Source: Tetradesmus obliquus (taxonomy: Eukaryota; Chlorophyta; Chlorophyceae; Sphaeropleales; Scenedesmaceae). Taken from it: a DNA stretch of 64,000 bases. The position numbers and the translations under genes were made by a program. A model generated the notes under the pieces. The model was not told where the DNA came from, ran no database searches, and saw nothing but the letters and a program-made list of their open reading frames with translations. Of the stretch, positions 50 through 64,000 are shown piece by piece; the first letter of the stretch is position 1, and the number at the start of each line of letters is the position of its first letter. The stretch lies in the NCBI GenBank assembly GCA_030272155.1, contig CP126204.1, positions 3,339,501 through 3,403,500 on the forward strand. Direction: 5' to 3'.

Positions 50-839
50 GCCCAGCAGGCGCTCATGGCAGCACAGCAGGCAGCAGCAGCAGCGCCGCCC
101 AAGCCTGTTGACGGCTACGTGCCCACGCGCTTCATCAGCGACGTCTTCTGCACTGCAGCACCAGCAACGCCATCGGCAGCAGGTGAGAACGCACGGCTGT
201 CACATCAACTTCTTGCACCCATATTTCTGCCGGCGCATGCTGCTTGCTGGCTGCCAATGCCGTTTGGTTGCGATTGGCGTCTGCAGCATGAATGTAACCA
301 AGCTTACAACCAGGGCTGATCTCATACTTAGTTAATCAGCTACAGCCTGTAGACGGCTACGTGCCCATGCGCTTCATCAGCGACGTCTTCTGCACTGCAG
401 CGCCGGCAGCGCCATCGGCAGCAGGTGAGAGCGCAGAATGGCGAAGCTTTAAGCATGCAATGCATGCAGTGCATGCAATGTACATGTATGCAATGGCCTA
501 CATGCATGCTGACTTCCACTCTGCAATGCACCATGTACTGACACGGTCGCGCTCTGCTGCCTCTGCTGCTGCTGCTGGCGCTGCTGCTGCAGCTGCCGCT
601 GCCACTAAAGCTGCGTCAGGTGGCCTTAGCCCGCTGTCTGGCTGCAGCCTGGCCTACCTAGCTCGTTCACTCTGCACCACAACATGCACTGACACGGACG
701 CGCTCTGCTCCTGCTGCTGCTGCTGCTGCTGCCGCCTCTGCAGCTGCACTGGGCGTCCTGAGCCGGCTGTCCGGCTGCAGCCTGGCGCACCTCATACCGG
801 CTTGACCATCCTGCACCAAAACGTACACTGACTCCATCA

Positions 840-887
<48 letters not shown>

Positions 888-1649
888 AGCTGCAGCGGCC
901 GGCCTGAGTCCGCTGTCTGGCTGCAGCCTGGCCTACTTGGGTGTGGACAGGGAGGAGGAGTTCAGCTGTGTGATGGGAGGCGGCCCTCACCTGGCTGTGC
1001 CCGAGCCGGAGATCGCTGCAGGAGACCTGCTGGCACTCACAACCAGGTAGGGTTCAGGGTTTTAAAATATAGGGTTTAGGGTTTAGGTTTGCACATGGGT
1101 GTGGACAGGGAGGAGGAGTTCAGCTGTTATGTGGCAGTCGGCCCTCGGCAGTGCCTGAACCGGAGATCGCTGCAAGAGACCTGCTGGCACTCACAACCAG
1201 GTAGGGTTTAGGGTTTTAAGTATGAGGGGTTAGGGTTTTGTGTTTGGGCATTGACAGGGAGGAGGAGTTCAGCTGTGTGATGGGAGGGGCCCTCACTTGA
1301 CTGTGCCTGAGCCAGAGTCGCTGCAGGAGACCTGCTGGCACTCACAACCAGGTAGGTTGAGAAGGTTCAGCCGCATGTTCTGTATGCTGTGGCATTGTGT
1401 GCTGCATGCAGGGCAGCATAGAGTTGCAGGGCCCCAGCTGCTCCTACAACAGCCACTTGCACAGGTTGTGTAGTCATTTTGCAGCAGTAGTGGCGCGTTG
1501 TTCAGGCTGCATTACTCTGTGATTGCCTGACTCTCATGCTGCTGCTGTTGCTGCTGCTGCAGCTGGGTGGAGAACAGTGGTGCTGTGGTCGAGTGTGTCG
1601 GAATAGCGGCGCCTTTTTTTGGGATGCATAAATATTTGCATTACCTGAC

Positions 1650-1732
<83 letters not shown>

Positions 1733-1996
1733 AGCTGGGTGGAGAACAGCGGCGCTGTGGTGGAGTGTGAGGAGGGCGTTGAAGTGTCTCCCCTCGTGAG
1801 CTATGCGGGAGAAGGCCTGGATGCTGTTGCAGGCGAGGGTGTTACTTTTGCTGAACCCTATGACCTAACACTGCAGGGTGCTACTGGGCAGGGCAAGCCC
1901 AAGCACAATGCGGGGCCTTGGGTGGCACCAGTGCTGGTGGCATATGCGGTGGGGGCTGGCTTGGCGATTGCGAAGCAGCTGACTGGCAACAAGTAG
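50..1996 (+). CDS. UDP-N-acetylhexosamine pyrophosphorylase-like protein, C-terminal part (5' end outside window)
   Basis: Three exons join in phase: 50-182, 890-1046 and 1735-1996, giving 183 C-terminal residues; the start lies before the window. Family resemblance rests on REEEF in the second exon and on CEEGVEVSPLVSYAGEGL in the last. These match the REDEF and CEISPLISYAGEGL blocks near the end of eukaryotic UAP1 enzymes, which make UDP-GlcNAc from UTP and GlcNAc-1-phosphate in the cytosol. Differences are visible: the block after REEEF is CVMGGG rather than PLKNA. The protein also ends in a hydrophobic stretch (PWVAPVLVAYAVGAGLAIA) followed by a basic tail, like a tail anchor, which is not normal for UAP1. 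Acceptors at 889 and 1734 follow (CTG)n tracts. Partial exon copies lie at 345-425, 595-665, 720-795, 1098-1201, 1247-1351 and 1563-1590. Family call moderate; exon structure fairly sure. Confidence 0.55.
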
Positions 1997-2440
1997 ACCC
2001 GCATAAAATGCAGTAGGGTGTGATGAGGCTTGATTTTTCGCGGCAAGCACACTTGCTGGCGGTGGTGTCCTAAGGCTTTTGGGTTGGTGTGGCAGGTGCA
2101 TTTGTGTGTGCTACTGGGCAGGCGCAAGCCCAAGCACAATGCGGGGCCCTGGGTGGCACCAGTGCTGGTGGCATATGCGGTGGGGGCTGGCTTGGCGGTT
2201 GCAAAGCAGCTGACTGGCAACAAGTAGACCCGCATAAAATGCAGTAGGGTGTGATGAGGCTTGATTTTTTGCGGCAAGCACACTTGCTGGCGGTGGTGTC
2301 CTAAGGCTTTTGGGTTGGTGTGGCAGGTGCATTTGTGTGTGCTACTGGGCAGGCGCAAGCCCAAGCACAATGCGGGGCCCTGGGTGGCATATGCGGTGGG
2401 GGCTGGCTTGGCGGTTGCGAAGCAGCTGACTGGCAACACG
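1879..2440 (+). repeat. Three tandem copies (about 231-bp period) of the terminal exon tail and its 3' flank
   Basis: The block GCTACTGGGCAG...CAAGCCCAAGCACAATGCGG recurs near 1879, 2109 and 2340. Copies 1 and 2 run through the stop codon and the CCCGCATAAAATGCAGTAGG flank. Copy 3 loses a short stretch and runs into unrelated sequence after 2435. They differ by point changes and small indels. Copies 2 and 3 lie downstream of the real stop and carry no acceptor, so they are probably in the 3' UTR or intergenic. Confidence 0.8.
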
Positions 2441-3344
2441 TACATGTGCTGCACCAGATTCGGAGTGGGTTGTGGTGCAGCAATTGGTCAGCACATGAGG
2501 TCTTGTTGCGCTGCTGGGTGGTGCAGCGAGCACATCTGCAGACACAGAGCAAGCACATCTGCAGCTGCTTGTGTTGCGACTTGCCGGCACCAGCGGCCTG
2601 TGGTGTGTTGATGGGGTGTGCAGGATGCATGTGACAAACCGTGATGTGACAGGTTTTACGTGACTGCCCTGCGCTACGGGATGCGGCAGCAGCCTTGATG
2701 CAGCAGGATACTGTGAGTTGGTGCATACTAGAGATTCTCGCAGGCAGAGCATTTCTGTAACCATGTTTATCTTCAAGAAAAGTTTTTCTGAGTGGGTTTG
2801 GCAGCTACGTGATAAACTGCTCAACTGAACACGTCACGTCGCAATGTATGTTTATACATAACCCATATATGGGTTAGTACGACCTGCTGCCTGTATGACA
2901 TCTGTGATGGCCTAGGCAGGAGCAGCGCCCTCTGGCACAACCAGATGTGACAGCAGTTTTGAAAGCATGCTGGCATGTAACAGACACGACAGTATAACTC
3001 TTACTGTAGTATACTAGTAGCGGATATGACAACAGGCTCAGCCAGCCTGGCTGCAAGTTAGAGGGCTTGTAGATAGATATTGACTCCATCAAGCGATGTG
3101 CCCTACTAGCAATGCACTACTGAAGAGATGTAAACCCGTAGGTACGTGAAACCCAAGAGATATGAGTGCGCAGTTATGGCGCGGTGATGGCACGTGTGTC
3201 GTCAAGCTGTCACACATGGTGGCTAAGAAGTACGTACATCATCCCCGTCGCTATCGCAATATCGCAATCTGCCCTTCCCCCCTCTCCCTCTGCTCTGGAA
3301 TAGGGACAATCTGTATACAGATGAACAAGAAATGGCTGCCATCC
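2441..3344. other. Intergenic spacer without recognisable gene
   Basis: This lies between the convergent 3' ends of the UAP-like gene and the GT71 gene. No exon chain, RNA gene or mobile element is recognisable. Base composition is ordinary for the window and long CTG tracts are absent. Confidence 0.5.
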
Positions 3345-6300
3345 TCACACATGCTTGCACATCAGCTCACTGCCCTGGATCCACCTCACAGCCTCAGGCA
3401 GCCACACCGCCTGAGCCAGCTCAAGCGCCGACCACGCTGCTGGCATTTTGAACTTTTTTGAACGCCCAGCCCCGCCAAAATCCTGCAACCCACCAGCCTG
3501 CCGCAGCTGCATCACAGGCATCGCACCATCAGCATTCGCTGCACGGGCCGGCCCTGCAGAAGCACAAACTGCGGGCGCATTTTTGGCTGCCATCAAGTGC
3601 CAGTTGAGGTACTGCAGCATGGCTGGCGGCTCAGCTGCAGCCAGCCACTTGGACAGCCCCTCGCGCTCAAGATCTGCAACACCTGCGGGTGTATTATCAG
3701 CTGCAGACAGCGCATGCACCAGCTCGTCCACAGCTGGCTGACCTGCGAGTACAGAAGCCCACTGCACCGCCGGCGCCAGCTGCTGCTGGGCAGCCTGTTG
3801 CTGCAGCAGCTGCTCCAGGCTGCCTGCTGCATGTTGCACGTGGGTGCAGGCGTCCACAGGCGCCTGCAGCAGCTGCCGGATCTGCACTTGCTGCTGCATG
3901 CCTGCAAGCGCCTCCCCTCCTTTGCTGCTGCCGTTGCTACTGCTGGTGGTGGTAGCGTCGTGTGGAAGCAGCTGTGACAGCTGCCCCTCGCATGCTGCCA
4001 GCAGCGCTGGCTGCGGCAGCAGCGCAACGCCGAGCGCCTGGATTCTAAGGAAGCGGCCCCACACGTCTTGCGGGCACGCCTGCAAGCCCTTTGGTGCTGC
4101 TGCTGCTGGCTGCTCCACTTGCAGCAGCACCAGCCGCGTAGCGTTCATCGCAAAGATGTTGGGATGATTAGAGAGGCGCGTGCCCACCCATTCTGGCATG
4201 GGCCCTGTTACTAACGCGTAAGGTGCCGGCGGCCCTTGAGCCCAGTTTTTATGCTTGTTGAGTGTGTTATGCACCCAAGCTTGCCTCCCGTAGTGATCGT
4301 GCTGTACCATAGCCCTCAGGCGGTGGAACTCGCCAGACTTGCCACTGAGTGCGGCAGCAGGCGGGATCGGCATCTGCGCGTAGCTTGCGGCCTTGCCCGC
4401 TGCTGAGAATGCGAGCATGTAGGTGTCCTTGTCGCCCCACAGGATGTTGTAGATCACGTCTGAGTGTGTGGTGATCCACCACAGGTGCTCCAGCACATCT
4501 GCCCAGCACCACATGTACACAGCAAAGCCATGAACATCATAGTTTGAAGTTGTGAGAACATGCATGCTGCAAGAGCATAGCGCAAAGGGCGCGGAGGCGT
4601 TGATGTAGATGACAGCTGAAGAATGAGCATGTACTGCTTGAGCCATATGTAGCAGACCTATATGGACTCAGCTCGCATCCAACAAATCCTAGGCTTCAGA
4701 GATAAACATCTCTATACAGATTGATGTCGCACCCGCATGCCTCACGCGGTCCAGAAGCACATGGCCAGACTCTGCCATTCCAGGTATGGGTTGCGTGCCA
4801 GCTAGCAAGCCCTACATTGGTACAAGGGCAGGCATGCACACTGAGTCACACGCTTCACACCATGCGCCGCATTGTGCGAAAGCAATCACTGACCCATGAT
4901 GGGCTGCAACTTTATTGAACCAGGGTTGTGTTGCCGCAGTTGCTACCGCATGGCACGACTAGCGGCCAGTGCTGTGTCGCTGCTGCCGCTTCACTGCACA
5001 ACCAGTGCCATGTTGCTGCAGCAGCTACATTGCACTCACCAGGCTTGCGTTGCTGATGCCCAGTGCCTTCATAGCGTCCTGCACTGCCTGGCTGCCCCAG
5101 CGCCCGTATGCGATGTCACCCCAGTGCAGGTTGCCATGCAGCGTCATGTGAGGCCCGTTGAAGAGCTCCTCTGGGTTTATTAGCGGGTAGGTGTCTGAGT
5201 CCGCCATCAGCACCTGCAGCACATGGTGTACCAGGGTGGAATTAAGGTGGTGAAGGGGTGATAAGAAGGTGATAAGCAGGATGTATCGTGTCTGATGCAG
5301 TCAACAGCTATACACACCTGCAGCAGCTGGCACATTCATGGTTACATCCAGATACTTGCAAAGAGTATGGCCCAGGTGACCTGTTGCATACACACACTGC
5401 ACGGCCACTGCTACCTTGGCTTGCTACACCTTTCACCACGGCACAGTTTTTGCATACACCATACAACCACACATGACACGACATGGCTGTGCAATGTGCA
5501 TCACAGTCGCAGCTAGCAATAGCCGCCTGCTGCAGCACTCTACTAGCAAGGTCAGCAGTTGCGCGGTCTTTTACACAAGAGCAGCTGAATGTGCACAGCT
5601 GACCTGTTTGAAGCGGGAGTTATACAGGGCCCATGCTTTTGCCTCCCAAGGCTTCTTCTGAATCTTGTGCCCAGGGTGCTCTAGCACTGCCTGCCCTGCA
5701 CTGCAACACAATACCGTATGCTGTAACAGCATGTTAGAGATAAAGCGCTACTGCAGTACATCACATGACAGGTCTGAGTCTTGCCTCAAGCACCACCGCA
5801 GGGTGCTCCAGCACTGCCTGCCTGGCCCTGTACTGCAACACAACACAGCACAACACATATCAGGATCTAGGTCTTGCCCCAAGCACTAGCCCGTGGTGCT
5901 GCAGCATCGCCTGCCCAGCGCTGCACAGCTGACCCGCAGGTGATATCGGCATGTTACACACACACGCATGTGCAGCTGTCCTTATGAGAGGTGGGAAGTG
6001 CTGAGCACAGGCCACATGGCCCTAGGCATGGCTGCAGGCACACCTGTCGGGGGAAGCTACACGCGTGTGGACCACCTCTACCAAAGTTCCTGGCAAGGTT
6101 CTGGCAGACGCCTAGCTGCTTGTAGTCATAATCGGCTTGCACGCCGCTGCACAGTCTGGCTGCACTACTCACGGGTTGTGGTGCGCCGGGTACGGCACAG
6201 CTGACAGGTCCAAGCCATATACTGGGCCAAGCGTGGCGTTCATTGCTGCAATGGCTGCTGGGTCAACCTCTTTCTTCGAGCCGATGTAAGCTACCTCAGC

Positions 6301-7582
6301 TGGCAAAGTGCAGTTGAGCTTGTGCCTCAGTGTCTACAACAGAAGGAGCAGCAGCAGCAGGAGCAGAGCAGCAGCAGCCCCAGGCGTAACAAGGTCTTAG
6401 GCGGTTGGGGCAACATAGCACACGCCGTGTGGCACACGGCACATATGCACTAAAACAAAGTACATGCACGCTGCATGTAAAGTGATTGTAGTCAGGCAAT
6501 GTTGATCGAACTTTTCCCTCCGTCACCTGCAGCGGCGCTGCTGATGTGGTGCAGGGCGCTGTCAGCATCAGCATAGCCGACAACTCTTGTCAAAAGCGCT
6601 GGGGTCAGCAGCAGCAGCAGCAGCAGTATAACATGTGTACTCACCCACAGTGAGGCGGTGATGGCGCCCAGCATGCCTTTTCCGCCGCCGACATACACTA
6701 TGCCTCGTTCCTCAGGCAGGCTAGCGAGGCGCGCCTTGCGTTCCTGCAGCAGTAGCAGTCGGAGTGTGCATGCTGTCATATGACTCAGCATCAGTTGGCA
6801 CGAGTAAGCAGCAGCAGCAGCAAGAGTAGGATTATGACTCATCATGAGTCAGCATGATGCTGAGCAGCCACAGTAGTGGGGGTGCAGCAGAGCACCTGCC
6901 AGTGTTCGGCACGGGCACTTGAAGGCAGGCTTGGCTGCTGTTGAGATTCCAGCAGTGGTTCCACATGCCAGATTCAGCAGTGTTGCTGCGTGCACGTATC
7001 AGCAGCGGAACTGCACAAGGCCAGCAGACCAGAGTTGGACCATGCTGCTAGGCATCAGCTATGGCTGCAGGAACAGGCTGCAGGAACAAGCTGCAGGAAC
7101 CAGCTGCAGGAACAGGCTGCAGGAACAGGCTGCAGGAACATGCTGCTGCAGGAACAGGCTGCAGGAACAGGCTGCAGGAACAAGCTGCACGAACAGGCTG
7201 CCAGCCTTGCCTGAAATGCTGGTGTTGCCAGGTACTGTTTCAGCGCAGTCCTGTATGCAGCGATCAGTGGCTGCGATGGCTCCTCAGTGCTGCTGCTGCT
7301 GCTGCTGCTGCTGTTGCTGTGTGCTTTGTTGTAGCAGTATCCTGGCAGGGGACAGGTCTTCATTAAGCCCTGGAGTGCTACAACTGTCTGCTGCTGCAGC
7401 AGATGCGGCTTTGCCTGTTGTGCGTGGCCAGCGCTGCTGTTGGCTGACCAAGGCATGGGGGCAGCAGCGATGCTGATGAACAATAGCCTCATGAGGAAAA
7501 TTGTTGCCAGGGCTGCCAGGATCAGCAGTGTGCTTGGACGCAGCTGCGAGCTGTGGCCGTGGTGGTACTGCTGCTGCTTCAT
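3345..7582 (-). CDS. GT71-family (MNN1/MNN2-like) glycosyltransferase, type II membrane protein
   Basis: Eight minus-strand exons join in phase: 7582-7211, 6743-6645, 6333-6173, 6146-6076, 5686-5604, 5213-5040, 4811-4733 and 4498-3345, for 730 aa. Residues about 18-38 form a signal anchor (STLLILAALATIFLMRLLF), so the enzyme should sit in the Golgi with a lumenal catalytic domain. GT71 hallmarks appear in order: GIVYVGGGKGMLGA, KAWALYNSRF, ADSDTYPLINPEELF (DxD metal site, D267/D269), ESGHVLLDRVRH, then ILWGDKDTYMLAF (about 365-377). Such enzymes transfer mannose or another sugar from a nucleotide donor to glycoproteins. After about residue 480 there is an Ala/Gln-rich tail without known motif. 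Exon 1 seems to use a GC donor at 7210, the least certain junction. The start is the only ATG ahead of the anchor. The real sugar substrate cannot be read from sequence. Confidence 0.85.
5790..5930 (-). repeat. Acceptor-side partial copies of GT71 exon 5
   Basis: The block around the exon 5 acceptor (5668-5710) recurs in diverged form at about 5790-5840 and 5870-5930, upstream in gene sense. The copies include the acceptor region and the first bases of the exon, but not the conserved KAWALYNSRF part or its donor. Confidence 0.6.
7066..7200. repeat. 12-bp minisatellite (CTGCAGGAACAG)n
   Basis: About eleven copies of CTGCAGGAACAG with few changes and one 3-bp insertion lie in the first intron of the GT71 gene, just after the proposed GC donor. 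Read on the minus strand the unit stays open, so the end of exon 1 is ambiguous here. Confidence 0.85.
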
Positions 7583-8861: not shown

Positions 8862-11800
8862 ATGTCGATCAACGCCACCAAGCTGCGCCACGACCTGGCT
8901 CCAGCCTCCCCAGACGATTGGTGAGTGCTGTTGCTGCCTCATGTGGTGCCCACAAAACTCAGCATGGTGCACAGGCCTGGCTTGCTCTGCATGAGCTGCA
9001 GCCACACATACATGTATAAGAAGGAATTTACATGTTTGTACTGCTTGCATTCAACGCCAATGCACTGCTTTTTCAGGCTGCATCAGTGATGCTCGGTCCT
9101 GGTCCTGTGTGTCACAGCTGCAGCCACATATGCTGGGCGTCTACTTGTACAGCACTGCTGCTGCTGCTGCTGCTGCCTGCTCCAGGGGTTCGCAAACAGC
9201 ATTTGTATTGCTGCATTGCACGCTTTGTGAACCTGCAGGAAGAAGCTCACTGAGAAAGATGCATTCCAAGCACTGGAGCAGGTTAAGGGACAGGTGCGGC
9301 ACTGGGACAATGCAAATGGAATCATAAATTGTTGATTATGCAGGCCCTGTGGCACCAAACCGCATGCATGTCACAAAGTATGTCTGGTGCATTGCCTGTT
9401 GGCGGTTAGTGCACCCAGCCACTAAAGTGGATTCCCTGATCAGGCAGCAATTGCTGCTGCCAAAGCAGCTGAGTGGATATCTGATCACACAGCAGTTGCT
9501 GCTGCCAATGCATGTGGCAGCTGCTAAGCCGCTTCGCACAGGCAGCTGTGTTGTCCAATGCACATGTCCAGCCCGCGTCGGCCATGTTTGTGGTAGAACA
9601 GCACAGAGCAGTACAAACCCCACATGGATTAGGCACTGCTTGACTCACACTGGCAGCTGTTGTGTGCTGCGCCTCATGCACACCACAGCACATGCTGCAA
9701 AGTGTGTGTCTGAACTGCTGCTTCTGCTGCCGCCAGCTGCCGCGTCTAGTGGTGGTGCTGCTGCTTTTGCCGCTGTATCCCCCTCCCCTGCTGCTGCCTC
9801 CTCTTCTGTTACCTCCTTCTGTGCTTCTCCTGTTGCTGCTCAACTCGGCTGCTCTATCCTGCTGCTGCATCCCTTGCTGCTGCCTCTGCCCCCTTGTGCT
9901 GCTGTTGATCCACTGCTGCTACTGCTGCTGCTACTGCTGCTGCTAATGCTGCTGCTGATGCACCTTTCCTGCTGCTGCTGCTGCTGCCGCTGCCGCTGCC
10001 ATCACTGTTGCTGCAGCTGTTCATCAACAACAAGTGGGTCGACCCCAAGGCAGGCGGCAAGCTTGATGTAGTCGACCCGCGCACCAATGACGTGGTCAAG
10101 CAGATTGCTTCTGCCGAGCCTGATGACGTGGATGCTGCTGTCAAGGCTGCTAGGAAAGCGTTTGACGAAGGCCCCTGGCCGCGCATGGGAGGCAAGGTGG
10201 GTTGTTTCGGTTAGCAAAAATGCTGTTCCAGCAAGGGGGGGCACTAAAGAAATTCCAGGACATCATCACAAGAAACCCAAACGGGGTTCCCCCCCCCCCC
10301 CCCCCCGCACTCACCTCAAAAACTTGCGCCTGCAGGCGCCTGACTTGTTGATATGTTTATTGGTAACAGCAATAATGTATCTAGACGACTGCAGCTGTGT
10401 TAACATGTGGTTGCAGCAACCTGTCCGCCAGTTTGCCCGACCAAAAAAGTTGCTGCTGCTGGGATTTGACATGCGCCACACCAGTGATCAGTCGATTGTA
10501 AGCTGCTCCACATGTAAATAAGTGTTCACTAGCCTTGAAGAGGTGTGCAATGGTTTTATTATGATCTAAGCTTTCAGACAAGCTTATGTGTGTCTCAATC
10601 AGGCACCTGGCAAAAAAGTTAGGAAATCCAAGACACAAAGTTGACCAGGCCCCTGCCCCCCCCCCCCCCCAAAAAAAAACCACGCCGGATGGCCTTAAAA
10701 ACTTTGCAGTAGGCAATTGTTATGTTAAATAACATGTCCTAACGTTTTCAGGCGGAAATGAATGATGATGCTGTCAGTGGATGGAGTGGCCCCCCCCCTT
10801 GGTTCCAGCGTATATTCTGATGTACTGGTGAAGACGGTGCGGAAAAGCTGTTTGCTGGTGCGTTGTTGGGTTTTCTGAATGAACGCCATTTCAAAGTTCA
10901 GCGCATTTCGTGCTGACGTGGATGCTGCTGTCAAGGCTGCCCGCAAGGCTTTTGATGAGGGGCCCTGGCCGCGCATAGGGGGCAAGGTGGGTTTTACATA
11001 GCGGGTTGGTAACAACGTTTGTTGCAGCAGAAAGTAACTCAAATGCTGTGTGCTGTTGCAATTGGGTTTGTTTGTGGATTGTGTTGCTGGGCAGGATTTG
11101 ACTGAAAGTGCAACACATTTGCCGGGCCTGCTGTCAAAGCAAGGCTGCTGATTCTCTGCGCAACCACCTGCATTGATTCTGGCCAGGTTGGCCTGCTGCC
11201 TGCATGCCAGCCTGGACAATACTTACAGGCACCATCCCACTGCTGGTGTGACAACGGTGTTTGCTTCTGACCTGTGTTGTTGTGTGGCCCGCGGCAGGCT
11301 GCTGAGCAAGCTGGCTGACCTTATGCAGGCCAACTTCATGCTGCTGGCGCTGCTGGGGAGCCCGGGACACACATAGCAACACGCCTGCCATGTTTTTATC
11401 ACTCACAGGGTCGCGGGCGCCTGCTGAGCAAGCTGGCTGACCTCATGGAGGCCAACCTGGCGCAGCTAGAGAGCTGAACAGAAGTAGAATTTGATTTCTG
11501 CGACTGCCTGTTGTAACATTTCCCCTGTGTAGGGGCGCGGCAGGCTGCTCAGCAAGCTGGCTGACCTGATGTCGGCCCAGCTGACGCAGCTGTCGCTGCT
11601 GGCGAGGCTGGATGCACTGAAACATGTTCTCTGTCTGCATCCGCATGCATGTCTGTTCCTGAGCAGGGCCGCGGCAGGCTGCTGTCCAAGCTGGCTGACC
11701 TGATGGAGGAGCATCTGACGAAGCTGGCGCTGCTGGAGAGCCTGGATGCAGGCAAGCCGCTCAGCCAGAGCATGCTCAAGGAGATCCCTCTGTGCATCGA

Positions 11801-12681: not shown

Positions 12682-12722
<41 letters not shown>

Positions 12723-12928
12723 CCACCGCCGCTGTTGCAGAGTTCACCTGGAAGGTCACACCCACACTGGCAGCAGGCAACACAGTGGTCAACTGTGATT
12801 CCAAAGACAGCAAAAATGCCGCCTGCTGCTGCTGCCGCTCACCTGCAGAGTTCACATGGAAGGTCACACCTGCACTGGGAGCAGGCAACTCCGTGGTCAT
12901 CAAGGTCCGCGACAAAAGTGAACTAATA

Positions 12929-12976
<48 letters not shown>

Positions 12977-13068: not shown

Positions 13069-13145
<77 letters not shown>

Positions 13146-50154: not shown

Positions 50155-50194
<40 letters not shown>

Positions 50195-53100: not shown

Positions 53101-53161
<61 letters not shown>

Positions 53162-54205
53162 AGAGCGCTCCGGCGACATCGAGCACTGGCCAGACGGCGG
53201 CTGGCTGGTGCATAACCTCACAGGCGTCTTCTGGTCAACCAACAACTGCCAGGGCACTGCCAAAGACAGCAAGACACGCGCCAACTGCAACCACATGGTG
53301 TACTGGCCTTACACAAGGCTGGATGGCTTCATGGCTGCTGCTGTGCAGTCTCCGGAGGAGCTTGAAGATGCTAAGCCTGTTGTGGATCGGGTGGCGGCTT
53401 CGGTAAAGGACTACATGAACGGCAGTGCTGCCAAGTGGTATTTGGACTATGCCAAAGCGTACGCAAAGATGATGAGCGTCGGTGAGTGTCGATGCAGCTG
53501 TTGCAAGGAGCGCTAGAAGTAGCTACTTGCTTCCTGTGTGCATTAGCTGCTCCAACTGCGGCATTTGGCTACAGGAAGCATAACGCTGCCAGCGTTGCTG
53601 GTCTTGCACTTGCACAGACGGGGCAACAGCAAAGCTTGCAGCAAGTGCAGCGTGCAGGGCTGTGCCGCTCACACACACGGTCTGCAGTGCTGCCGGATTG
53701 CAGAGTTCATAGGCTACTATTTCATTCTGCTTCCTCTCTTCCTTCGTAAAATTGTCCTCACACTCGTGATGCCACTGTGTGCATGCTGCTGCTATTGCTG
53801 CTGCTGCTGCAGCCGCCGACTGGTCGCCGAAGGCTGGCTTCCCCACCTTCAGCGAGTGCACAGCATCATTCATCATGCCAACAGTGAATCCACTGCTACT
53901 GCTGCTGCTGCTGCCGTCTGCCGTGTGCTGCTGCAGCCGCCGATTGGTCGCCCAAGGCTGGCTTCCCCACTTTCAACGAATGCACAGCATACGTCAAAAC
54001 AGGCGCCAAGGATGAGTCAGGCTACTGCAAAGCCTGCACCAGGCCGGCCACTTGGGAGACCAATGCAGCAAAGGCACGCACTGCACTTGCAGCAAGCAAG
54101 AGGAGCCCTGGCCCCTGCCCTAAGGACTGTGTGTGTGCAAGTGCAGCAGCTGGCAGGGACTTTGATTGGAAGGCCATGTCGTGCGGGGTGGTGTGCGTGA
54201 ATTAG
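47901..54205 (+). CDS. Secreted haem peroxidase (plant-type superfamily), complete
   Basis: Ten exons join in phase to 531 aa: 47901-47972, 48089-48164, 48682-48798, 49177-49412, 50208-50357, 50670-50737, 51662-51813, 52807-52944, 53164-53481 and 53937-54205. Residues 1-22 are a signal peptide (MLCLLLLLSLAPLASVTA). The distal haem site is IIRAGYHDA with Arg62 and His66, followed by GSIKCGGADAS. The proximal site is EEGVALLGIHALM with His213. The end of the core (SAAKWYLDYAKAYAKMM) resembles the last helix of ascorbate peroxidases. Such enzymes reduce H2O2 while oxidising a small donor or wall polymer. After the core comes a Cys-rich extension of about 90 residues (CTAYVKTGAKDESGYCKACT, CPKDCVCA), not usual for the family. 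A possible alternative last exon ending at 54841 (CDPNNVVDAALQCRGMYPDE) could replace its end. Introns hold large arrays of exon 7 fragments. Confidence 0.9.
48520..48580 (+). repeat. Acceptor-side copy of peroxidase exon 3
   Basis: Bases around 48534-48575 repeat the start of exon 3 (KRMA.MIIRA), ahead of the intact exon at 48682-48798; the copy stops just before the distal His codon. Confidence 0.75.
49590..49672 (+). repeat. Donor-side copy of peroxidase exon 4
   Basis: The last 80 bases of exon 4 (VCAMAVTSTLAGASGRQAPN) are repeated with few changes. The following intron start (GTTGACTTTGACCAGGCGTT) is repeated too, so the unit clearly spans the junction. Confidence 0.9.
49884..50135 (+). 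repeat. Two acceptor-side copies of peroxidase exon 5
   Basis: VGRIDHAEANPE-like fragments start near 49886 and 50068, the second after a (CTG)n tract, ahead of the intact exon at 50208-50357. Neither includes the proximal His. Confidence 0.85.
49990..50048 (+). repeat. (CTG)n tract in the intron before peroxidase exon 5
   Basis: About 19 CTG units lead to the acceptor of the second exon 5 decoy. Confidence 0.95.
50360..50645. other. AT-rich island inside a peroxidase intron
   Basis: About 285 bases are dominated by T and A with recurring TTGTTATC and ATTATTATTG words. Composition is strikingly unlike the GC-rich surroundings. No gene or end repeat is visible; it starts right after the donor of exon 5 and ends about 25 bases before the acceptor of exon 6. 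Confidence 0.8.
50979..51661 (+). repeat. Six acceptor-side copies of peroxidase exon 7, period about 112 bp
   Basis: CTACGCCAAGGGTGCCAACATCAGC with its acceptor begins near 50981, 51084, 51198, 51317, 51429 and 51541, before the intact copy at 51662. Each unit also holds a CTG tract and CTGCCTGCATTTGCGGTGTG. The third copy has a mutated acceptor and a stop codon. Confidence 0.95.
51870..52562 (+). repeat. Seven donor-side copies of the end of peroxidase exon 7
   Basis: CTAGACCTGGCMACACCCACAG with a GTGAG/GTGTG donor ends near 51897, 51981, 52091, 52211, 52333, 52452 and 52562. Most include the preceding ATGCACAAGCTGGACACGCA. The first two units are virtually identical to the intact end and its intron start. 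Confidence 0.95.
52687..52750 (+). repeat. Acceptor-side copy of peroxidase exon 8
   Basis: SMFDVKLDVGLKDLDEDTY with its ATGCAG acceptor precedes the intact exon (52807-52944) by 121 bases. Confidence 0.9.
53101..53161 (+). repeat. (CTG)n tract ending in the acceptor of peroxidase exon 9
   Basis: About 20 CTG units run directly into the CAG at 53161-53163. Confidence 0.95.
53812..53870 (+). repeat. Acceptor-side copy of peroxidase exon 10
   Basis: ADWSPKAGFPTFSECTA repeats the start of the last exon (intact from 53937), after a CTG tract and CTGCAG acceptor. Confidence 0.9.
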
Positions 54206-57439: not shown

Positions 57440-57477
<38 letters not shown>

Positions 57478-60400
57478 TGCCCGTGGTGCGCATGTTCGGC
57501 GTGAACCACGCAGGTGCGGCACGATGCTTGCAGGATGGTGGACCCACAGCAGGATCAGCAGGCAGGGGCAGCAGCAACAGATGTGTCTGCTGTAGTGCTC
57601 TCAGCTGTGATGAAGCACAATGCCCGCTTGAGGGACACAATGCCGTCATCACGTGCTATGAATGATTGAGCTTAGCACAGCAGGTGCCCGTGGTTCGCTT
57701 GTTCGGCATGAGCGGAGCAGGCGCAGCAAATCAGCTTGGCACGCGCGGTGTCTGATAGTTGCATACGCGCGGTGTCTGATAGTTGCATGGAAGGATGCAT
57801 AGGCTAGCTGCAGCTGCAGTGCCCGCTGCGCAGAAGCAGCTGTGCCTCCATTCTGCTGGGCCGCAGTCATGGTGTCTGCACAGGAGACAAAAAGCAGCGG
57901 CATTGGCATCGACAGCAGCAAAACTACGCCCCAGTGCAGCCGCTGCATGTGTTGGAATCTAGTCGTGCTCACTGCTGCTGCTGCTGCCGCTGCTGCTGCT
58001 GCTGCTGCTGGCTGCTGCAGGCAACAGTGTGTGCGTGTTTGTGCACGGCTTTGAGCCCTACTTCTACTGCGACTGCCCGCACGGCTGGGGGCCCGAGGAC
58101 TGCCAGGAGCTGTGCAACGCGCTGCGGGTGCGTTCTGTAACATGATGGTTGTTTGTCTTTACTTGTCTCTGGGTTTCTGGAGCTTTCTGGAGCTTTCAGG
58201 TCATTGGGGTGGCTTTATTGGGATGGCTGGGCCTGCGGATTGCCAGGAGCGCTGCAACGCACTTTGGGGCTGTTGCACAGGAATGGTGGGAAGCTATAGC
58301 GCTGTAGGGTGCCAGCCACTACAGGCCCAGTGGGTCTGCACAGCTGCAGGCTTGAGGACTGCCAGGAGCACCATTGCAATGCTGGTTTGTGTTTTCAAGC
58401 GCTTTCTCTGACACTGGCGTCCTTAGGGTTGAGGCCTGCACAGCAGCGGCTGTGAGGACTGCCAGGAGCTTGCAAAATCACGTGGGGTGATTGTAAGCAT
58501 TTTTCTCTTGTATCTGCTTACAGGACCACGGGCGCCTCAAAGACAAGGGCCCTGGGGTGCCGCCTGTGGCTCGCGTGGAGCTGGTTCATATGACAAACAA
58601 TAGCGGGGCCCACTGAGCTGACATGCTGCTCCACCTATGCTTGCAAGACCACCCCCAGCTGAAAGCAGGGTCCTCGCGTGCCGCCTTTGGTGTTTGCCCT
58701 CCCTCACCTCGGTCAGTCGCACACACAGCACTGCCTTCAACTGTTGTGTGCTTGCCTGGCCGTCTGATACCTGCTTGCAGGACCACGGGCGCCTCAAAGA
58801 CAAGGGCCCTGGGGTGCCCCCAGTGGCGCGCGTGGAGCTGGTGCAGAAACCGCTACACTCGATCATACTGGCCGGTTTTGCTGATGCATGCAGAGACCCC
58901 CGAAAAAAACACTCACGCTTGACTCAGTTGCGCTTGCCCGCTGCTATCATGCTTGTTTGCAGGACCACGGGCGCCTCAAAGACAAGGGCCCTGGGGTACC
59001 ACCAGTGGCGCGTGTGGAGCTGGTGCAGAAGACAAACCTGTGGGGCTATCAGGGAGGGCTGTCGCGACCCTACCTGAAGATCGTGTGTGCGCTGCCAAAC
59101 CTGGTGGCGCCCGCGCGAGGTGAGAGGGGCGGAGAGCATATGTTTGTTGACAAGCAAGAGAAGTTTTGAGGATTGCGACTCAACGTCAGTTTGGTTGATA
59201 ACCACACACTGTGCCTCTACTAGCGCTCTGCTCTCTTAATAACCTTCGGCCTGCACCGCGAGTGGGCCTGCAAGACGCGACAGAATCATAGCTTGGTTAT
59301 CATACAGGGCGTAAGCATACATGTATGTATCAACCAGTGACGTATGTGCTGTGCGCGCTGGAGGACGGCCTGCGCTGCGTGGACCGCGCCCTGCCATCCC
59401 TTGCCAGCTACGAGAGCAACCGCCTCATCGACACATCCTTGACAGCCGCACTGATCATAGTATACATTTTCATTGTGCTTTGCTGCTGTGCAGGCGCCCT
59501 GGAGGACGGCATGCGCTGTGGTGACCGCGCCCTGCCGTCCCTCGCCAGCTACGAGAGCAACTTGACACATCCTTGACAGCCGCACTGATCATACAATACT
59601 GATTCATTGCTACTCATTGCTACGTCAATGCTACTTGTTTATTGTGCTTTGCTGCTGTGCAGGCGCCCTGGAGGACGGCATGCGCTGTGGTGACCGCGCC
59701 CTGCCGTCTCTTGCCAGCTATGAGAGCAACGTGTTGTACGCGCTGCGCTTCATGGTGGACACCAACATGGGCGGGGGGCAGTGGCTGGAGATACCGGCAG
59801 GTGCGGTACGGGGCCTTTGCCGATAGGTTTGGTGGGTTGCGCGCATTCGGTGTTGCATGCGCTGCGCTCGACTGTGGCATGGTGACAGGCGCCGGGCAGT
59901 GGCTGGAGTTCCCCGCAGTGTGACATGTCGCTGTTGTCTGCACGTACGTTGCTTCAGCAGTTGCTCTGCGTGCTGCCATGTCTTGTTGAAGGCGAGATTT
60001 GCATGGTTTATTTGATGCTTTCAGTTTGCTTGACTGGGCCTTGCACTGCACAGCTGCACCTGCAGTGCGGATACCTTGGCACATGTCATTCATGATGTTA
60101 CTTACTTCGTCACGCGCCGCTGCTGCTGCTGCTGCTGCAGGCAAGTGGCGTGCTGCAGCAGGCCCTGAAGGCGGCGCGGGGCGCGCCAGCTGGTGCCAGG
60201 TGGAGGCATCTGCTATAATCACTGCTGCCGCCTACGGTGCCATGGTGTGAAACAGCCTCACCAAAACACTGACGCCTGTGCTGCTGATGCTGCTGCTGCT
60301 GCTGTTGATGTTGCTGCTGCAGGCAAGTGGCGTGCTGCAGCCGGCCCTGAAGGCGGCGCGGGGCGCGCCAGCTGGTGCCAGGTGGAGGCATCTGCTATGG

Positions 60401-61436
60401 TTACTGCTGTTGCCTACGGTGCCATGGCGTGAAGCAGCCTCACCAACACACTGACGCCTGTGCTGCTGATGCTGTTGATGTTGATGTTGCTGCTGTAGGC
60501 AAGTGGCGGGCTGCAGCAGGCCCTGAAGGCGGCGCGGGGCGTGCCAGCTGGTGCCAGGTGGAGGCCCACTGCGTGTGGAGCGACATCATTGCACACGCGC
60601 CTGAAGGTGAGCAGCGGCAGCAGCAGCTGCAGCAGCAGCAGCGCTGACATTGAAGCGTAGACGCTGTCTGACAGTGTGGAATCGACAGCACGTTGCGTCA
60701 GCACAGCAGCAACAGCAGCAGCAAGTATGTTGCGGTTGATCTCTTTGCTTAGGCACCACCAGCAGGCCGTGCCAGCTGGTGTCAGGTGGAGGCGCACTGC
60801 GTGTGGAGCGACATCACCGCACACGCGCCTTGTGCATTGCGCCGCTGCGCGCCCGGTCACCTGTGCAACTCACATGCGGTTTGATGGTTCTGCTGCATCT
60901 GGTGCAGGCGAGTGGTCGCGCATCGCGCCGCTGCGCGTTTTGTCCTTTGACATCGAGTGTGCGGGCCGCAAAGGCCACTTCCCCGAGCCGCAGCAAGACC
61001 CCGTGATCCAGATTGCGAGCATGGTCACTGTGCTTGGAGAGGCCAAGCCGCGTGTGAAGAACATCTTGACGCTGGGCAGCTGCGCGGCGATCGTGGGCGC
61101 GGAGGTAGGCGGCTGGCTGTGTGTGTTTCAAGACGACTGGGACGCGTATGGTTTGTTGCTGTGTTGTGCAACAGTACGCGTGCTGAGCTGGGGGCTTCAA
61201 CGTATGTGATGTGGGGCGGCGGAGCAGCAGGGTGTCTTTGTGCTGCTGGTGGGTTGGGCCGGGGTGCTCAGAGTTGCCAAGCCGTGCGAGTAAAACATCA
61301 TCATGCTGGGCAGCCGGGCAGCGCTTGTATGCACGGAGACGAGGGGAAGTGCCTGTTGCTGCGTATGTGTGCATGGCTGTGTGCGCATATGGTTTCAGAG
61401 CTGGGCGCTGCTGTCTTGAGGTGTCTCTTTTGTCAA

Positions 61437-61473
<37 letters not shown>

Positions 61474-64000
61474 GTCAGGTGATGTCGTTTGAGAGCGAGG
61501 CGGAGATGCTCAATCGCTGGACCAGCCTGGTGCTGGAGACAGACCCAGACATCATCACAGGTGAGGCTGTGAGAAACAGAAATATAAGGCTATGACTTCA
61601 TTGCTTTGACCTGCTGCACCTGTTTCAGCGCCACGCTGCTTCACTGCCTTGTGTCGCCTTGTGTTGCCGCCATGCCTGACGCTAGGCTTGAGTTGTGTAT
61701 TACAGGGTGCAACACAGGGTGCGCAACACAACACAGTGTGCCAGTATGCTATCATGTGCTCTTCTACTTGCCCCCGCAGGCTACAACATCAACAATTTTG
61801 ACCTGCCCTACCTGTTTGAGCGAGCCAAGGCGCTGCGCGTGGACGGCGACGCACACCAGTGGGGGCGCATCCGGCACAGGTGCGGGAGGCCTCCAGCATA
61901 GAAGCATACATCAGTGTGTCCAGCCAGCCAGCATGCCTTTGGCTTAATGACGACAGCTGTCATGTTCATGCGCGGCGCTCCTCCCTACAGCCGTGCCTGC
62001 GCTGACCTATCTGTTCCAAAACTCTCCCTCTCTTCCTGACCCGTTGTGTGTTGCTCTTCTCAGTGCTTCCCGCAACCGTGTGCATGCTTCCCGCAGCCTC
62101 ACTGCTACTCTCACTGCTTCCAGCAGCCGTGTGCACGGCACCACCTTCAGCTGCATGGCGCTGTCATGCACGATTCGCTCACTGCTCGCACCAGCTGACT
62201 TTTGTATCACTGCTGCTCCCTGCCTGCAGCCGCGTGCGCATGCGCGACACCACCTTCAGCAGCAAGGCGTACGGCACGCACGAGTACAAGGACCTCACCA
62301 TCGAGGGCCGCGTGCAGTTTGACGTGTACATGGCGCTGCAGCGAGACCACAAGCTCAGCAGTTACACACTCAACGCGGTGAGCTCACTCGAGTAATATGT
62401 TTTTTGTAATTTTTGACATGTCAGCTATTATCCGAATGCAGTGATTGCGACAAGCTCCAGCTTCTCACGGCAGTGAGTGCTTGAATATGTGTAGCCATAT
62501 GCTGGGTTTCAGCAGTTGTCCAGTTTGACGTGTACATGGCGCTGCAGCGAGACCACAACCTGTTCAGCTACACGCTCAACGCGGTGCGTGACACTGTGGC
62601 TGATATTGCTGTTGATGCTGCTTGCAGTGAGCGCAACAAGCTCTGCAGCTGCAAGTTTGAAAGCGACATACGCGCTGATACCATTCTCATGTGTGTTATT
62701 ACCCATGCAGGTTCGGCGCACTTTCTTGGGGAGCAGAAAGAGGACGTGCACCACTCAGCCATCAGCGACCTGCAGAATGGCAACGCGGAGACGCGCCGCC
62801 GCCTGGCTGCTTCTGACACATTTGTATGCTTTTCTGCGTACCTTGTGTTCTTGCAGGTGTCGGCACGCGTCCTGGGCGAGCAAAAAGAGGACTTGCATCA
62901 CTCAGCCGTCGGACTTGCCGAACGGCAAGGCGGAGGCCAACATGTTGTGGCTGCTTCTGACAATTACGTATGTTTGTGTACCGTGTCTCTCTGCAGGTGT
63001 CGGCGCAGTTTCTAGGAGAGCAGAAAGAGGACGTGCACCACTCAGCTATCAGTGACCTGCAAAACGGCAACGCGGAGACGCCCCGCCGCCTGGCTGCTTC
63101 TGACACATATGTATGCTTTTACGCATACCTTGTGTTTTTGCAGGTGTCGGCACACTTGACCTGGGCGAGCAGAAGGAGGACGTGCACCACTCCGCCATCA
63201 GCGACCTGCAGAACGGCAACGGCAGACACTCATATCCAACATTCCTGACTTTGTGCAATTGTGCTTGGCTGCCTGTCTTCCTGTGCAGGTGTCGGCGCAC
63301 TTCCTAGGCGAGCAGAAGGAGGACGTGCACCACTCAGCAATCTCTGACCTGCAGAACGGCAACGCGGAGACGCGCCGCCGCCTGGCTGTGTACTGCCTGA
63401 AGGACGCGTACCTGCCGCAGCGGCTGCTGGACAAGCTGATGTACATGTACAACCACATCGAGATGGCCAGGGTTACAGGGGTGCCTGCGAGCTACCTGCT
63501 GACCAGGTGCGCATGGATGTCAACACTTTCAAGCGTGTTTTATGACAATATCACTTGATTTCTGGCGTGCAAGTCACTGGTAGGATATGAATGCCTATTC
63601 TTCGATATTGGGTTGACTCACAGCGAGTGTGCGCAGCGGCTGCTGGACAAGCTGATGTACATGTACAACCACATCGAGATGGCCAGGGTCACAGGCGTGC
63701 CTGCGAGCTACCTGCTGACCAGGTGCGCATGATCGCCAACACTTGCTCAGACGTGCAGCCATCTGCTGCGTGTTCACCGCTGCTCCGCTCATGTTGAAAT
63801 CGCTGCTACTTCGCACCTTTTTCATACCATATGCAGGGGCCAGTCTGTCAAGGTGTTCAGCCAGCTGCTGCTTAAGTCACCATACACGCACTGCTGCTGA
63901 TGTTCAGCTGTTCACATGCTGCCTCATGCCATGCAGGACCATTCCATCAAGGTGTTCAGCCGGCTGCTGCGGCATTTAGCTATACCTCACTATATGCACA
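56439..64000 (+). CDS. POLD1: DNA polymerase delta catalytic subunit, N-terminal and exonuclease domains (continues past window)
   Basis: Eleven exons join in phase to about 529 aa: 56439-56661, 57274-57384, 58021-58127, 58963-59119, 59663-59800, 60499-60606, 60908-61104, 61479-61560, 61780-61879, 62230-62377 and 63289-63506. The next exon ([12 protein letters not shown]) has two candidate copies near 63837 and 63937, and the true one may lie outside. The protein replicates the lagging strand and proofreads. The N-terminus has a basic PPAKR motif and an acidic stretch, then [14 protein letters not shown]. Proofreading motifs: Exo I FDIEC (Asp296, Glu298), Exo [12 protein letters not shown] (Asp382) and Exo [12 protein letters not shown] (Asp496), each 19-20 residues before the human positions. 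All exonuclease acids are present. Polymerase motifs and the iron-sulfur cluster should lie downstream. Exon fragments flank most exons. Confidence 0.95.
57466..57725 (+). repeat. Two donor-side copies of POLD1 exon 2
   Basis: CAGGTGCCCGTGGTKCGC...GGCGTGAAC with the old donor recurs at 57476-57513 and 57681-57722. The intact exon is 57274-57384. Confidence 0.85.
58205..58475 (+). repeat. Three donor-side copies of POLD1 exon 3 end
   Basis: GAGGACTGCCAGGAGC-type fragments lie near 58233, 58352 and 58453, after the intact exon (58021-58127). They are shorter and more decayed than elsewhere. Confidence 0.7.
58525..58860 (+). repeat. Two acceptor-side copies of POLD1 exon 4
   Basis: GACCACGGGCGCCTCAAAGA and following bases start at 58525 and 58782, before the intact exon at 58963-59119. 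The 5' halves are nearly identical; both lose similarity after the VELVQK codons. Confidence 0.9.
59350..59925 (+). repeat. Copies around POLD1 exon 5
   Basis: Acceptor-side copies ([20 protein letters not shown]) start near 59358 and 59494; the intact exon is 59663-59800. A donor-side fragment ([10 protein letters not shown]) lies at about 59886-59920. Confidence 0.9.
60139..60835 (+). repeat. Copies around POLD1 exon 6
   Basis: Acceptor-side copies ([20 protein letters not shown]) start at 60141 and 60324 after CTG tracts; the intact exon is 60499-60606. A donor-side copy ([19 protein letters not shown]) lies at about 60766-60830. This region is also a 180-bp-period tandem repeat. Confidence 0.9.
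61180..61350 (+). repeat. Decayed donor-side copy of POLD1 exon 7
   Basis: GAGGCCAAGCCGCGTGTGAAGAACATC is echoed near 61274-61310 (GAGTTGCCAAGCCGTGCGAG...AAAACATCATC), with several indels. Confidence 0.6.
62505..62590 (+). repeat. Donor-side copy of POLD1 exon 10
   Basis: CAGTTTGACGTGTACATGGC...CTCAACGCGGTG repeats the end of exon 10 (62230-62377) with few changes ([20 protein letters not shown]). Confidence 0.9.
62705..63240 (+). repeat. Four acceptor-side copies of POLD1 exon 11
   Basis: Copies of [20 protein letters not shown] start near 62710, 62857, 62998 and 63144, with a period of about 145 bp, before the intact exon (63289-63506). They end near the RRRLA codons, before the catalytic Exo III Asp. 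Confidence 0.95.
63625..63980 (+). repeat. Donor-side copy of POLD1 exon 11 and two copies of the next exon start
   Basis: CTGCTGGACAAGCTGATGTA...CTGACCAG with GTGCGC donor recurs at about 63640-63721. ATGCAG acceptors at 63836 and 63936 are followed by similar KVFSQLL-type codons; neither shows a clear donor. Confidence 0.8.

What the first reader, a model, noticed from the sequence alone, without database searches (positions are those of the whole stretch)
50..64000. One-sided exon decoys: acceptor halves upstream and donor halves downstream of every affected exon
Dozens of partial exon copies in the introns of all seven multi-exon genes follow one rule, on both strands. Copies before an intact exon carry the acceptor plus the 5' part; copies after it carry the 3' part plus the donor. 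I found no clear exception and no intact second exon. The simplest origin is repeated tandem duplication of segments that span an exon-intron junction, with the exon itself staying whole. Because each decoy has a single splice site, exon definition could ignore it, which would explain why even essential genes such as POLD1 tolerate the arrays. Each intron thus starts with stacked donors and ends with stacked acceptors, so nested or stepwise splicing is possible. I do not know of a described genome with this organisation.
Basis: partly seen in the sequence, partly recalled or inferred. Interest (0 to 1): 0.9.

Follow-up and report, generated by a model that had tools for sequence, protein, structure and literature searches.

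The report
Half-exon copies stacked around exons
In this green-alga genome many exons are flanked by spliced-out copies of their own nearer half; most of the strict pattern follows from how such duplications arise, but their splice-site-centred placement and the coding-like way they have changed do not.

Summary
In eight modelled multi-exon genes (70 exons), 112 partial exon copies lie beside 39 exons, in 7 of 8 genes. All 60 upstream copies are 5'/acceptor type, all 52 downstream copies 3'/donor type; none holds the opposite junction. The rule is mostly geometry: a tandem duplication across one exon edge can leave its truncated copy only on that side. Three things are not geometry. (1) Units are about 137 nt and centred on the junction. 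(2) Intron-only duplicates are nearly absent: about 8-10 detectable expected, at most 1 seen. (3) Copies differ from the exon and from each other mainly at synonymous sites, although frameshifts show they are not maintained as reading frames. I infer repeated exchange with functional exons (gene conversion or unequal exchange between diverged alleles). Nested splicing has no support here. The genome is Tetradesmus obliquus or close; the trait is patchy: 38 of 106 predicted exons in one 100-kb sample, 3 of 108 in another. The listings of 10 paper searches held no description of it.

The parts
50..1996 (+). G1, 3' end of a gene of unknown family, 4 exons in window: 50-182, 890-1046, 1417-1464, 1735-1996
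   Evidence: open frame through all junctions; no Pfam match
3345..7582 (-). G2, mannosyltransferase-like gene, 6 exons (exon 1 donor uncertain, last exon not joined in frame); no copy above threshold except a minisatellite
8862..18677 (+). G3, aldehyde dehydrogenase, 13 exons, 518 aa
   Evidence: full-length relative P0003
19951..24007 (+). G4, bZIP-like by eye (no Pfam match), 7 exons
33466..42163 (+). G6, unknown protein, 13 exons
44707..47575 (-). G7, unknown protein, 6 exons
47901..54205 (+). G8, haem peroxidase, 10 exons
   Evidence: relative P0123
56439..64000 (+). G9, DNA polymerase delta catalytic subunit (POLD1), 11 exons in window
344..435 (+). G1 E1 donor half x1
622..786 (+). G1 E2 acceptor halves x2
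1093..1356 (+). G1 E2 donor halves x2
1566..1597 (+). G1 E4 acceptor half x1
2108..2442 (+). G1 E4 CDS end + 3'UTR copies x2 (stop-spanning, not splice-spanning)
10911..10993 (+). ALDH E3 donor half x1
11286..11616 (+). ALDH E4 acceptor halves x3
11862..12118 (+). ALDH E4 donor halves x3 (96-nt period)
12308..12345 (+). ALDH E5 acceptor half x1
12736..13046 (+). ALDH E6 acceptor halves x3
13419..13837 (+). ALDH E6 donor-side copies x4
13967..14264 (+). ALDH E7 acceptor halves x3
14538..15053 (+). ALDH E7 donor halves x4
15138..15169 (+). ALDH E8 acceptor half x1
15511..15576 (+). ALDH E8 donor half x1
15859..16042 (+). ALDH E9 acceptor halves x2
16807..17131 (+). ALDH E10 donor halves x2
17172..17679 (+). 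ALDH E11 acceptor halves x4
18307..18345 (+). ALDH E12 donor half x1
22611..22763 (+). G4 E6 acceptor halves x2
23300..23388 (+). G4 E6 donor half x1
23500..23551 (+). G4 E7 acceptor half x1
34035..34219 (+). G6 E2 acceptor halves x2
34508..34680 (+). G6 E2 donor halves x2
34729..35054 (+). G6 E3 acceptor halves x2
35560..35592 (+). G6 E3 donor half x1
35598..35774 (+). G6 E4 acceptor halves x2
36040..36101 (+). G6 E4 donor half x1
36204..36256 (+). G6 E5 acceptor half x1
36665..37003 (+). G6 E5 donor-side copies x3
37788..38083 (+). G6 E7 acceptor-side copies x3
39140..39283 (+). G6 E9 donor halves x2
39580..39965 (+). G6 E10 acceptor halves x3
40259..40450 (+). G6 E10 donor halves x2
40730..40957 (+). 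G6 E11 acceptor halves x2
41252..41300 (+). G6 E11 donor half x1
46004..46104 (-). G7 E3 donor half x1
46696..46766 (-). G7 E2 donor half x1
48539..48569 (+). peroxidase E3 acceptor-side copy x1
48839..48892 (+). peroxidase E3 donor half x1
49587..49711 (+). peroxidase E4 donor half x1
49878..50126 (+). peroxidase E5 acceptor halves x2
50970..51576 (+). peroxidase E7 acceptor halves x6 (112-nt array)
51888..52566 (+). peroxidase E7 donor halves x6
52678..52756 (+). peroxidase E8 acceptor half x1
53811..53866 (+). peroxidase E10 acceptor half x1
57477..57724 (+). POLD1 E2 donor halves x2
58229..58263 (+). POLD1 E3 donor-side copy x1
58515..58848 (+). POLD1 E4 acceptor halves x2
59345..59564 (+). 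POLD1 E5 acceptor halves x2
59850..59918 (+). POLD1 E5 donor-side copy x1
60139..60389 (+). POLD1 E6 acceptor halves x2
60762..60830 (+). POLD1 E6 donor-side copy x1
61264..61338 (+). POLD1 E7 donor-side copy x1
62099..62160 (+). POLD1 E10 acceptor half x1
62518..62586 (+). POLD1 E10 donor half x1
62706..63211 (+). POLD1 E11 acceptor halves x4
63632..63744 (+). POLD1 E11 donor half x1
63831..63970 (+). two similar acceptor-like segments, probably 5' halves of the next POLD1 exon, which lies outside the window
   Evidence: pair; reading by eye; the sequence beyond the window could not be fetched

Best explanation
Shown: segments of about 137 nt centred on splice junctions (roughly 57 nt of exon, 72-76 nt of intron) have been tandemly duplicated again and again. 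Shown by logic: when a duplicated segment spans one exon edge, the copy next to the rest of the exon stays intact and the truncated copy can lie only on the outer side, so acceptor halves come upstream and donor halves downstream. Duplications of a whole exon are missing, and duplications inside coding sequence are rare; both would change the protein. Shown: the copies are not kept as reading frames (frameshifts and stops occur), yet they differ from the exon and from each other mostly at synonymous sites. Inferred: their sequence lineage has spent most of its time as coding sequence, because copies are repeatedly re-seeded from functional exons, by non-allelic gene conversion or by unequal exchange between diverged haplotypes, and decay only after the last exchange. 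Exons are the part of a gene that stays alike between haplotypes, so exon-anchored copies can be exchanged and stay recognisable, whereas intron-only duplicates drift out of sight. Inferred: splicing ignores the strong decoy sites because a decoy has no partner site at exon distance (exon definition). The result is intron growth, about twofold in affected introns, with no demonstrated function.
For: One-sidedness 112 of 112. No whole-exon copy, no copy over 71% of an exon. Period quartiles 121-138-146 nt (upstream, 56 of 60 copies) and 116-136-152 nt (downstream, 40 of 50), junction near the middle; per-family KS p = 6e-6 in 57 families, repeated in a second region, 36 families, p = 0.0026. 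Random tandem duplications would give 29% intron-only against 48% one-junction; the intron part alone is recognisable in 16 of 58 families, 13 if three doubtful assignments are left out, so about 8-10 intron-only families are expected, at most 1 seen. S 385, N 297, stops 5 over 6,525 exonic nt; 28 frameshifting against 7 in-frame indels. pN/pS copy-exon 0.28 (0.22-0.36) and copy-copy 0.34 (0.26-0.43); by my reckoning a dead copy made in one event gives about 0.5 or more. pS = 0.207 (0.16-0.255) + 0.34 pN over the 104 of 112 copies of 30 nt or more: copies without amino-acid change are already about 20% diverged at synonymous sites. Second region: pN/pS 0.20 (0.14-0.27), 18 frameshifts, 0 in-frame indels, 56 copies. 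Donor-side intron flank implied divergence 0.4-0.5 against about 0.1 for the exonic part. Introns with copies: 38 of 62, median 629 nt; without: 24, median 312.
Against: No conversion tract was shown directly: clustering of identical runs is weak (28 of 500 permutations reach it). In the 24 most diverged copies the synonymous excess (ratio 2.17 by class, against 8.6 in the least diverged) is what plain neutral decay predicts (about 2), and in families with a single copy it is 2.75 (S 89, N 88), only slightly above that. In ALDH, copies carry the residue of the relative P0003 in 9 of 28 copy-codons where P0003 differs from our exon (14 match our exon, 5 neither), so those patches were not overwritten recently. 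The slope of pS on pN, 0.34 (-0.10 to 0.82), is lower than simple decay after capture predicts (1 or more), though noise in pN flattens it. Exchange by itself does not explain why units are centred on the junction. Regional patchiness is unexplained. The re-seeding model needs deep allelic divergence, judged here only from proteins (97% and 96% identity to relatives).
Confidence: 0.5

Rival explanations
1. Plain neutral model: one-off tandem duplications across exon edges, filtered by selection on the exon, followed by neutral decay of the copies. Everything is mutation pressure plus geometry.
For: Geometry explains the one-sided rule, donor-before-acceptor order (18 of 18) and lack of whole-exon copies; splice dinucleotides are lost at about the copies' nonsynonymous rate; most amino-acid differences lie on the copy branch (85 of 99 copy-codon differences in ALDH have relative = exon); the most diverged copies have a neutral-like ratio.
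Against: pN/pS between two untranslated copies is 0.34 (0.26-0.43), below the 0.5 floor; intercept 0.207 at pN = 0; near-absence of intron-only duplicates; junction-centred breakpoints.
Confidence: 0.2
2. The copies are directly functional, either as occasionally used alternative exon ends or as splicing-regulatory decoys (including the first reader's nested splicing), and are kept by selection.
For: Exonic part conserved far more than adjoining intron; decoy splice sites nearly as strong as real ones; pN/pS well below 1.
Against: 28 of 35 indels in copies (18 of 18 in the second region) are frameshifting; splice dinucleotides not kept better than the rest; AG lies directly before the inner end in only 3 of 52 downstream copies and GT directly after it in 1 of 60 upstream copies; a purely regulatory role would not favour synonymous change; relatives are colinear with the intact-exon model (P0003 and P0004, 518 aa without gaps; P0123, one extra residue).
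Confidence: 0.18
3. Assembly artefact or collapsed haplotypes.
For: Repeated sequence is a classic source of assembly error.
Against: 91 of 112 copies differ from their exon by 5% or more; a separate T. obliquus annotation (P0001) with other exon residues holds peptides read from the same two decoys (36 of 37 residues at 36763-36873, and NKMTLKPPAAVMPPA from 40954 on); two distant regions show the pattern and a third does not.
Confidence: 0.02
4. The duplication step itself is tied to splice junctions, for example by nucleosome-sized breakage units or transcription-linked damage at exon-intron borders. This may hold together with the best explanation.
For: Unit size near 137 nt and junction-centred in donors and acceptors alike; intron-only and intergenic duplicates nearly absent.
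Against: One family spans a stop codon instead (1878-2442); unit ends are read from diverged alignments; no chromatin or break data.
Confidence: 0.25

Closest known systems
Intragenic partial tandem duplication (known mutation class, recalled)
   Same: Head-to-tail units spanning an exon edge, reading frame of the intact exon kept
   Different: Here at 39 of 70 exons in one window, both edges, units of similar size centred on the junction
Duplicated exons kept alike by non-allelic gene conversion (for example Nav1.4 exon 26a/26b of salamanders, PMC8476164; abstract and passages seen)
   Same: Local duplicate exon sequence inferred to exchange with its partner
   Different: There whole exons with open frames and expression; here untranslated halves with one splice site
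Mutually exclusive duplicated exons (recalled)
   Same: Tandem exon copies inside a gene
   Different: Those are whole exons with both splice sites and frame; here none of 112
Stwintrons (PMC8469720, search listing with start of abstract) and recursive splicing (recalled)
   Same: Several donors and acceptors within one intron
   Different: Here no splice element is interrupted by another intron, and decoys derive from the neighbouring exon
Introners (recalled)
   Same: Green algae, intron growth, repeated sequence with splice sites
   Different: Each copy resembles its own exon; the self-comparison shows no family shared between genes of the window apart from one CTG tract

Membership tests
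Partial tandem duplication across one exon edge | Direct repeats adjoining the parent in tandem | tested here: met
   Full-period arrays, e.g. 96, 112, 154, 231 nt; no inverted pair touches an exon at E <= 1e-8; neighbour spacing 94-259 nt for 5-95%
Partial tandem duplication across one exon edge | Truncated copies only on the outer side of the duplicated edge | tested here: met
   112 of 112 with curated models; 67 of 83 with automatic models in a second region
Non-allelic gene conversion / concerted evolution | Similarity of copies higher than flanking sequence and not explained by selection on the copy | tested here: met
   Exonic part about 0.1, intron flank 0.4-0.5; reading frame not kept. 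Selection of another kind is not excluded
Non-allelic gene conversion / concerted evolution | Discrete conversion tracts or shared states after a datable split | tested here: inconclusive
   28 of 500 permutations reach the observed clustering; some ALDH copies keep older residues
Mutually exclusive / duplicated whole exons | Copy with both splice sites and open frame | tested here: not met
   0 of 112 whole; 19 of 112 with a frameshift, 5 with a stop
Stwintron | Splice element interrupted by an internal intron | tested here: not met
   Modelled donors and acceptors of the intact exons are contiguous (60 of 62 donors GT, 1 GC, 1 an unresolved model)
Recursive / nested splicing | Splicing intermediates using inner sites | not testable with these tools
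   No RNA data held
Introner | Near-identical element in many unrelated introns | tested here: not met
   Repeat pairs of the window are local, at most about 1.9 kb apart, except one CTG tract. One 1-kb stretch searched genome-wide gave its own neighbours and short CTG-like matches; other stretches were not searched genome-wide

The most novel reading that the evidence does not exclude
A genome compartment in which silent half-exons beside functional exons form a concertedly evolving template bank: they are seeded and overwritten by functional (often diverged) alleles and can give sequence back to the exon, so they stay under indirect coding constraint although never translated.
Probability: 0.27. 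Interest if true: 0.82.

Novelty: new variant of a known kind. Interest (0 to 1): 0.62.

Why it matters
It would be a natural, large-scale experiment on two open questions: how the splicing machinery ignores one to six near-full-strength decoy sites beside an exon edge (family sizes 1-6), and how untranslated copies keep a coding-like substitution pattern. It also matters in practice: an existing gene model of this species (P0001) takes decoys for exons, so gene models here need caution.

Tried and rejected
Idea that copies are complete cryptic exons: inner ends show no donor or acceptor excess of the needed kind (AG before 3 of 52, GT after 1 of 60). Idea of purely neutral copies: disfavoured by copy-copy pN/pS and the regression, though the most diverged copies fit it. 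Idea of two parental haplotypes only: most differences are private to one copy (single 321, shared 38, all 45 events in families with at least two copies), so two allele classes do not suffice. Idea of copy-to-exon transfer of amino-acid changes in ALDH: of the residues in which our exon differs from both relatives and which copies cover, only codon 453 is shared with copies. Raw BLAST with loose scoring over-extended the pairs and was replaced by exon-anchored alignment. First gene-finder setting over-predicted (214 exons against 71); tuned setting 71 predicted, 55 exact of 71, on its own training data. A wider genome sample and a whole-genome family search were tried but not answered, so genome-wide prevalence rests on 200 kb plus the window. 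Paper searches; no description of this organisation among the papers listed (8 to 20 shown of up to 594 found per search, fewer where fewer were found). Three Scenedesmus genome papers were searched for words only: no occurrence of 'intron' in any of the three, and nothing on exon duplication. In the second region, 27 of 83 hits were dropped (9 exons with mixed hits and one repeated-protein stretch) before computing pN/pS and unit sizes; by construction no exceptions remain there.

Full report
What was checked. The window is part of contig 14 of a 104.7-Mb, 17-contig genome. Proteins of the window match Tetradesmus obliquus: aldehyde dehydrogenase 97% over 518 aa (P0003) and a second gene whose public model is largely identical in exon stretches but wrong at its start and near its end (P0001). 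I therefore call it T. obliquus or a close relative. Exons were located by reading frame and splice consensus: eight multi-exon genes with 70 exons. Pfam names three as aldehyde dehydrogenase, peroxidase and DNA polymerase delta, and one as mannosyltransferase-like; the others it was given had no match (G6 was not scanned).

The pattern. Aligning each exon to its adjoining introns gives 112 partial copies after dropping two minisatellite hits; no reversed-query control hit reached the threshold. They lie beside 39 of 70 exons, on both sides of 19, in 7 of 8 genes. Twenty-eight of 62 acceptors and 28 of 62 donors are affected, plus the last POLD1 donor in the window. All upstream copies come from the 5' part and all downstream copies from the 3' part; none contains the opposite junction. 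Affected introns are about twice as long as unaffected ones (629 against 312 nt).

Why the rule is not the surprise. A tandem duplication of a segment that crosses one exon edge leaves the complete exon on the inner side and the truncated copy on the outer side. Duplications inside an exon or of a whole exon alter the protein. A simulation with the observed unit sizes gives 48% one-junction, 29% intron-only, 13% within-exon and 6% whole-exon events. Removing the harmful classes leaves one-junction and intron-only ones. One-sidedness and donor-before-acceptor order follow.

What does not follow. First, intron-only duplicates: of 158 direct repeat pairs 60-1000 nt apart, 104 have one copy in coding sequence, 39 join two copies, 2 lie in coding sequence on both sides, 1 adjoins a copy, and 12 are noncoding only; of these 12, ten belong to one repeat element at 26-28 kb, one is probably the next POLD1 exon, and one is intronic. 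With exonic parts masked, 16 of 58 families are still recognisable from their intron part, or 13 without three doubtful assignments, so about 8-10 intron-only families should have been visible. Second, units are centred on the junction: exonic part median 57-58 nt, intronic part 72-76 nt, period 136-138 nt, using 96 of 110 copies with periods of 60-220 nt; no family has its break in the far quarter of the allowed range (0 of 57, KS p = 6e-6). Upstream and downstream copies of one exon overlap by more than 2 nt in 2 of 19 exons, against 8.5 expected (P = 0.001). The second region repeats the centring (0 of 36, p = 0.0026). Alignment ends of old copies may be cut short, so the exact break positions are approximate.

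Third, the substitution pattern. Over 6,525 aligned exonic nt there are 385 synonymous, 297 nonsynonymous and 5 stop differences; indels are 28 frameshifting and 7 in-frame. Copies are therefore not maintained as reading frames. Yet pN/pS is 0.28 for copy against exon and 0.34 (0.26-0.43) for copy against copy; two dead copies of one exon should give 0.5-1. Regression over the 104 copies of 30 nt or more gives pS = 0.207 + 0.34 pN. The second region gives pN/pS 0.20 with 18 of 18 indels frameshifting. Most differences are private to one copy. Against this, the 24 most diverged copies have a synonymous excess of 2.17, as neutral decay predicts, so the signal comes from the less diverged ones (8.6 below 5% divergence, about 5 between 5 and 15%). 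The simplest reading is that the lineage of each copy was coding for most of the time since it parted from today's exon, that is, copies are taken from or overwritten by functional exons, including diverged alleles, and then decay. Deep lineages exist: relatives differ by 3-4% in protein. For a related Scenedesmus strain a genome paper reports separated alleles in a genome that is likely diploid (PMC7955037, passage seen).

Splicing. Decoy donors are as strong as real ones and decoy acceptors somewhat weaker (39 of 49 and 48 of 60 above the 10th percentile of real sites; other intronic GT and AG 6.5% and 32%). Where the junction is inside the alignment GT is kept in 39 of 45 and AG in 47 of 51 copies, which favours well-aligned copies. 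The loss is close to the copies' nonsynonymous divergence (6.3%), so there is no sign of protection or purging. Relatives are colinear with the intact-exon model; one, P0123, comes from a source whose longest contig is 2.8 kb, too short for this gene with introns, so it is probably from cDNA. The public T. obliquus model P0001 instead begins in one decoy (36 of 37 residues equal to ours) and runs through another, showing that decoys mislead gene prediction and that the arrays exist in another assembly.

Prevalence. With one automatic gene finder (55 of 71 window exons exact, training data), exons with copies are 40 of 71 in the window, 38 of 106 in a 100-kb stretch of contig 11 and 3 of 108 in a 100-kb stretch of contig 2. 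Sixteen of 83 hits on contig 11 break the rule under these automatic models, in 9 predicted exons that I take mostly for copies predicted as exons; this was not proved case by case. The cause of the patchiness is open; the genome tools did not answer further requests.

Verdict. Real, patchy and not found described in the papers listed by my searches; the headline rule is mostly forced by geometry, while junction-centred units and coding-like divergence of silent copies are the parts worth a specialist's time.

Noticed in passing
24523-25566: Intact single-exon tyrosine-recombinase reading frame (Pfam Phage_integrase 26.3 bits, just under its cut-off of 27.1), Crypton-like by recall.
   Followed up: no
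26091-31300: Repeat element with two inverted 144-nt tandem arrays (26265-27115 and 27230-28132) and short CACGTCAAG / CGTCCAGTTG repeats near its ends; its limits are read by eye.
   Followed up: no
inner ends of the downstream copies: GT stands directly before the inner end in 14 of 52 downstream copies (about 3 expected from 1 in 16); no explanation.
   Followed up: no
37282-37479: Five identical 39-nt units, in frame within G6 exon 6 as modelled, each with its own CTGCAG acceptor-like site, so the used acceptor is ambiguous.
   Followed up: no
1878-2442: A 231-nt, 98% identical duplication of coding end plus 3'UTR: a stop-spanning counterpart of the splice-spanning copies.
   Followed up: partly
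55318-55896: Short (44-nt) inverted repeat about 0.5 kb apart in intergenic DNA, MITE-like.
   Followed up: no
window, upstream of many acceptors: Long CTG/TGC tracts precede many acceptors and vary in length between copies.
   Followed up: no
L009-L018 (contig 2, 3.00-3.10 Mb): Gene-dense 100 kb almost free of local duplications (3 direct pairs in 100 kb, against 147 in the 64-kb window).
   Followed up: partly
P0001 (T. obliquus OEZ85_004583): Public gene model starts in a donor-half decoy and reads through an acceptor-half decoy; probably a wrong model.
   Followed up: partly
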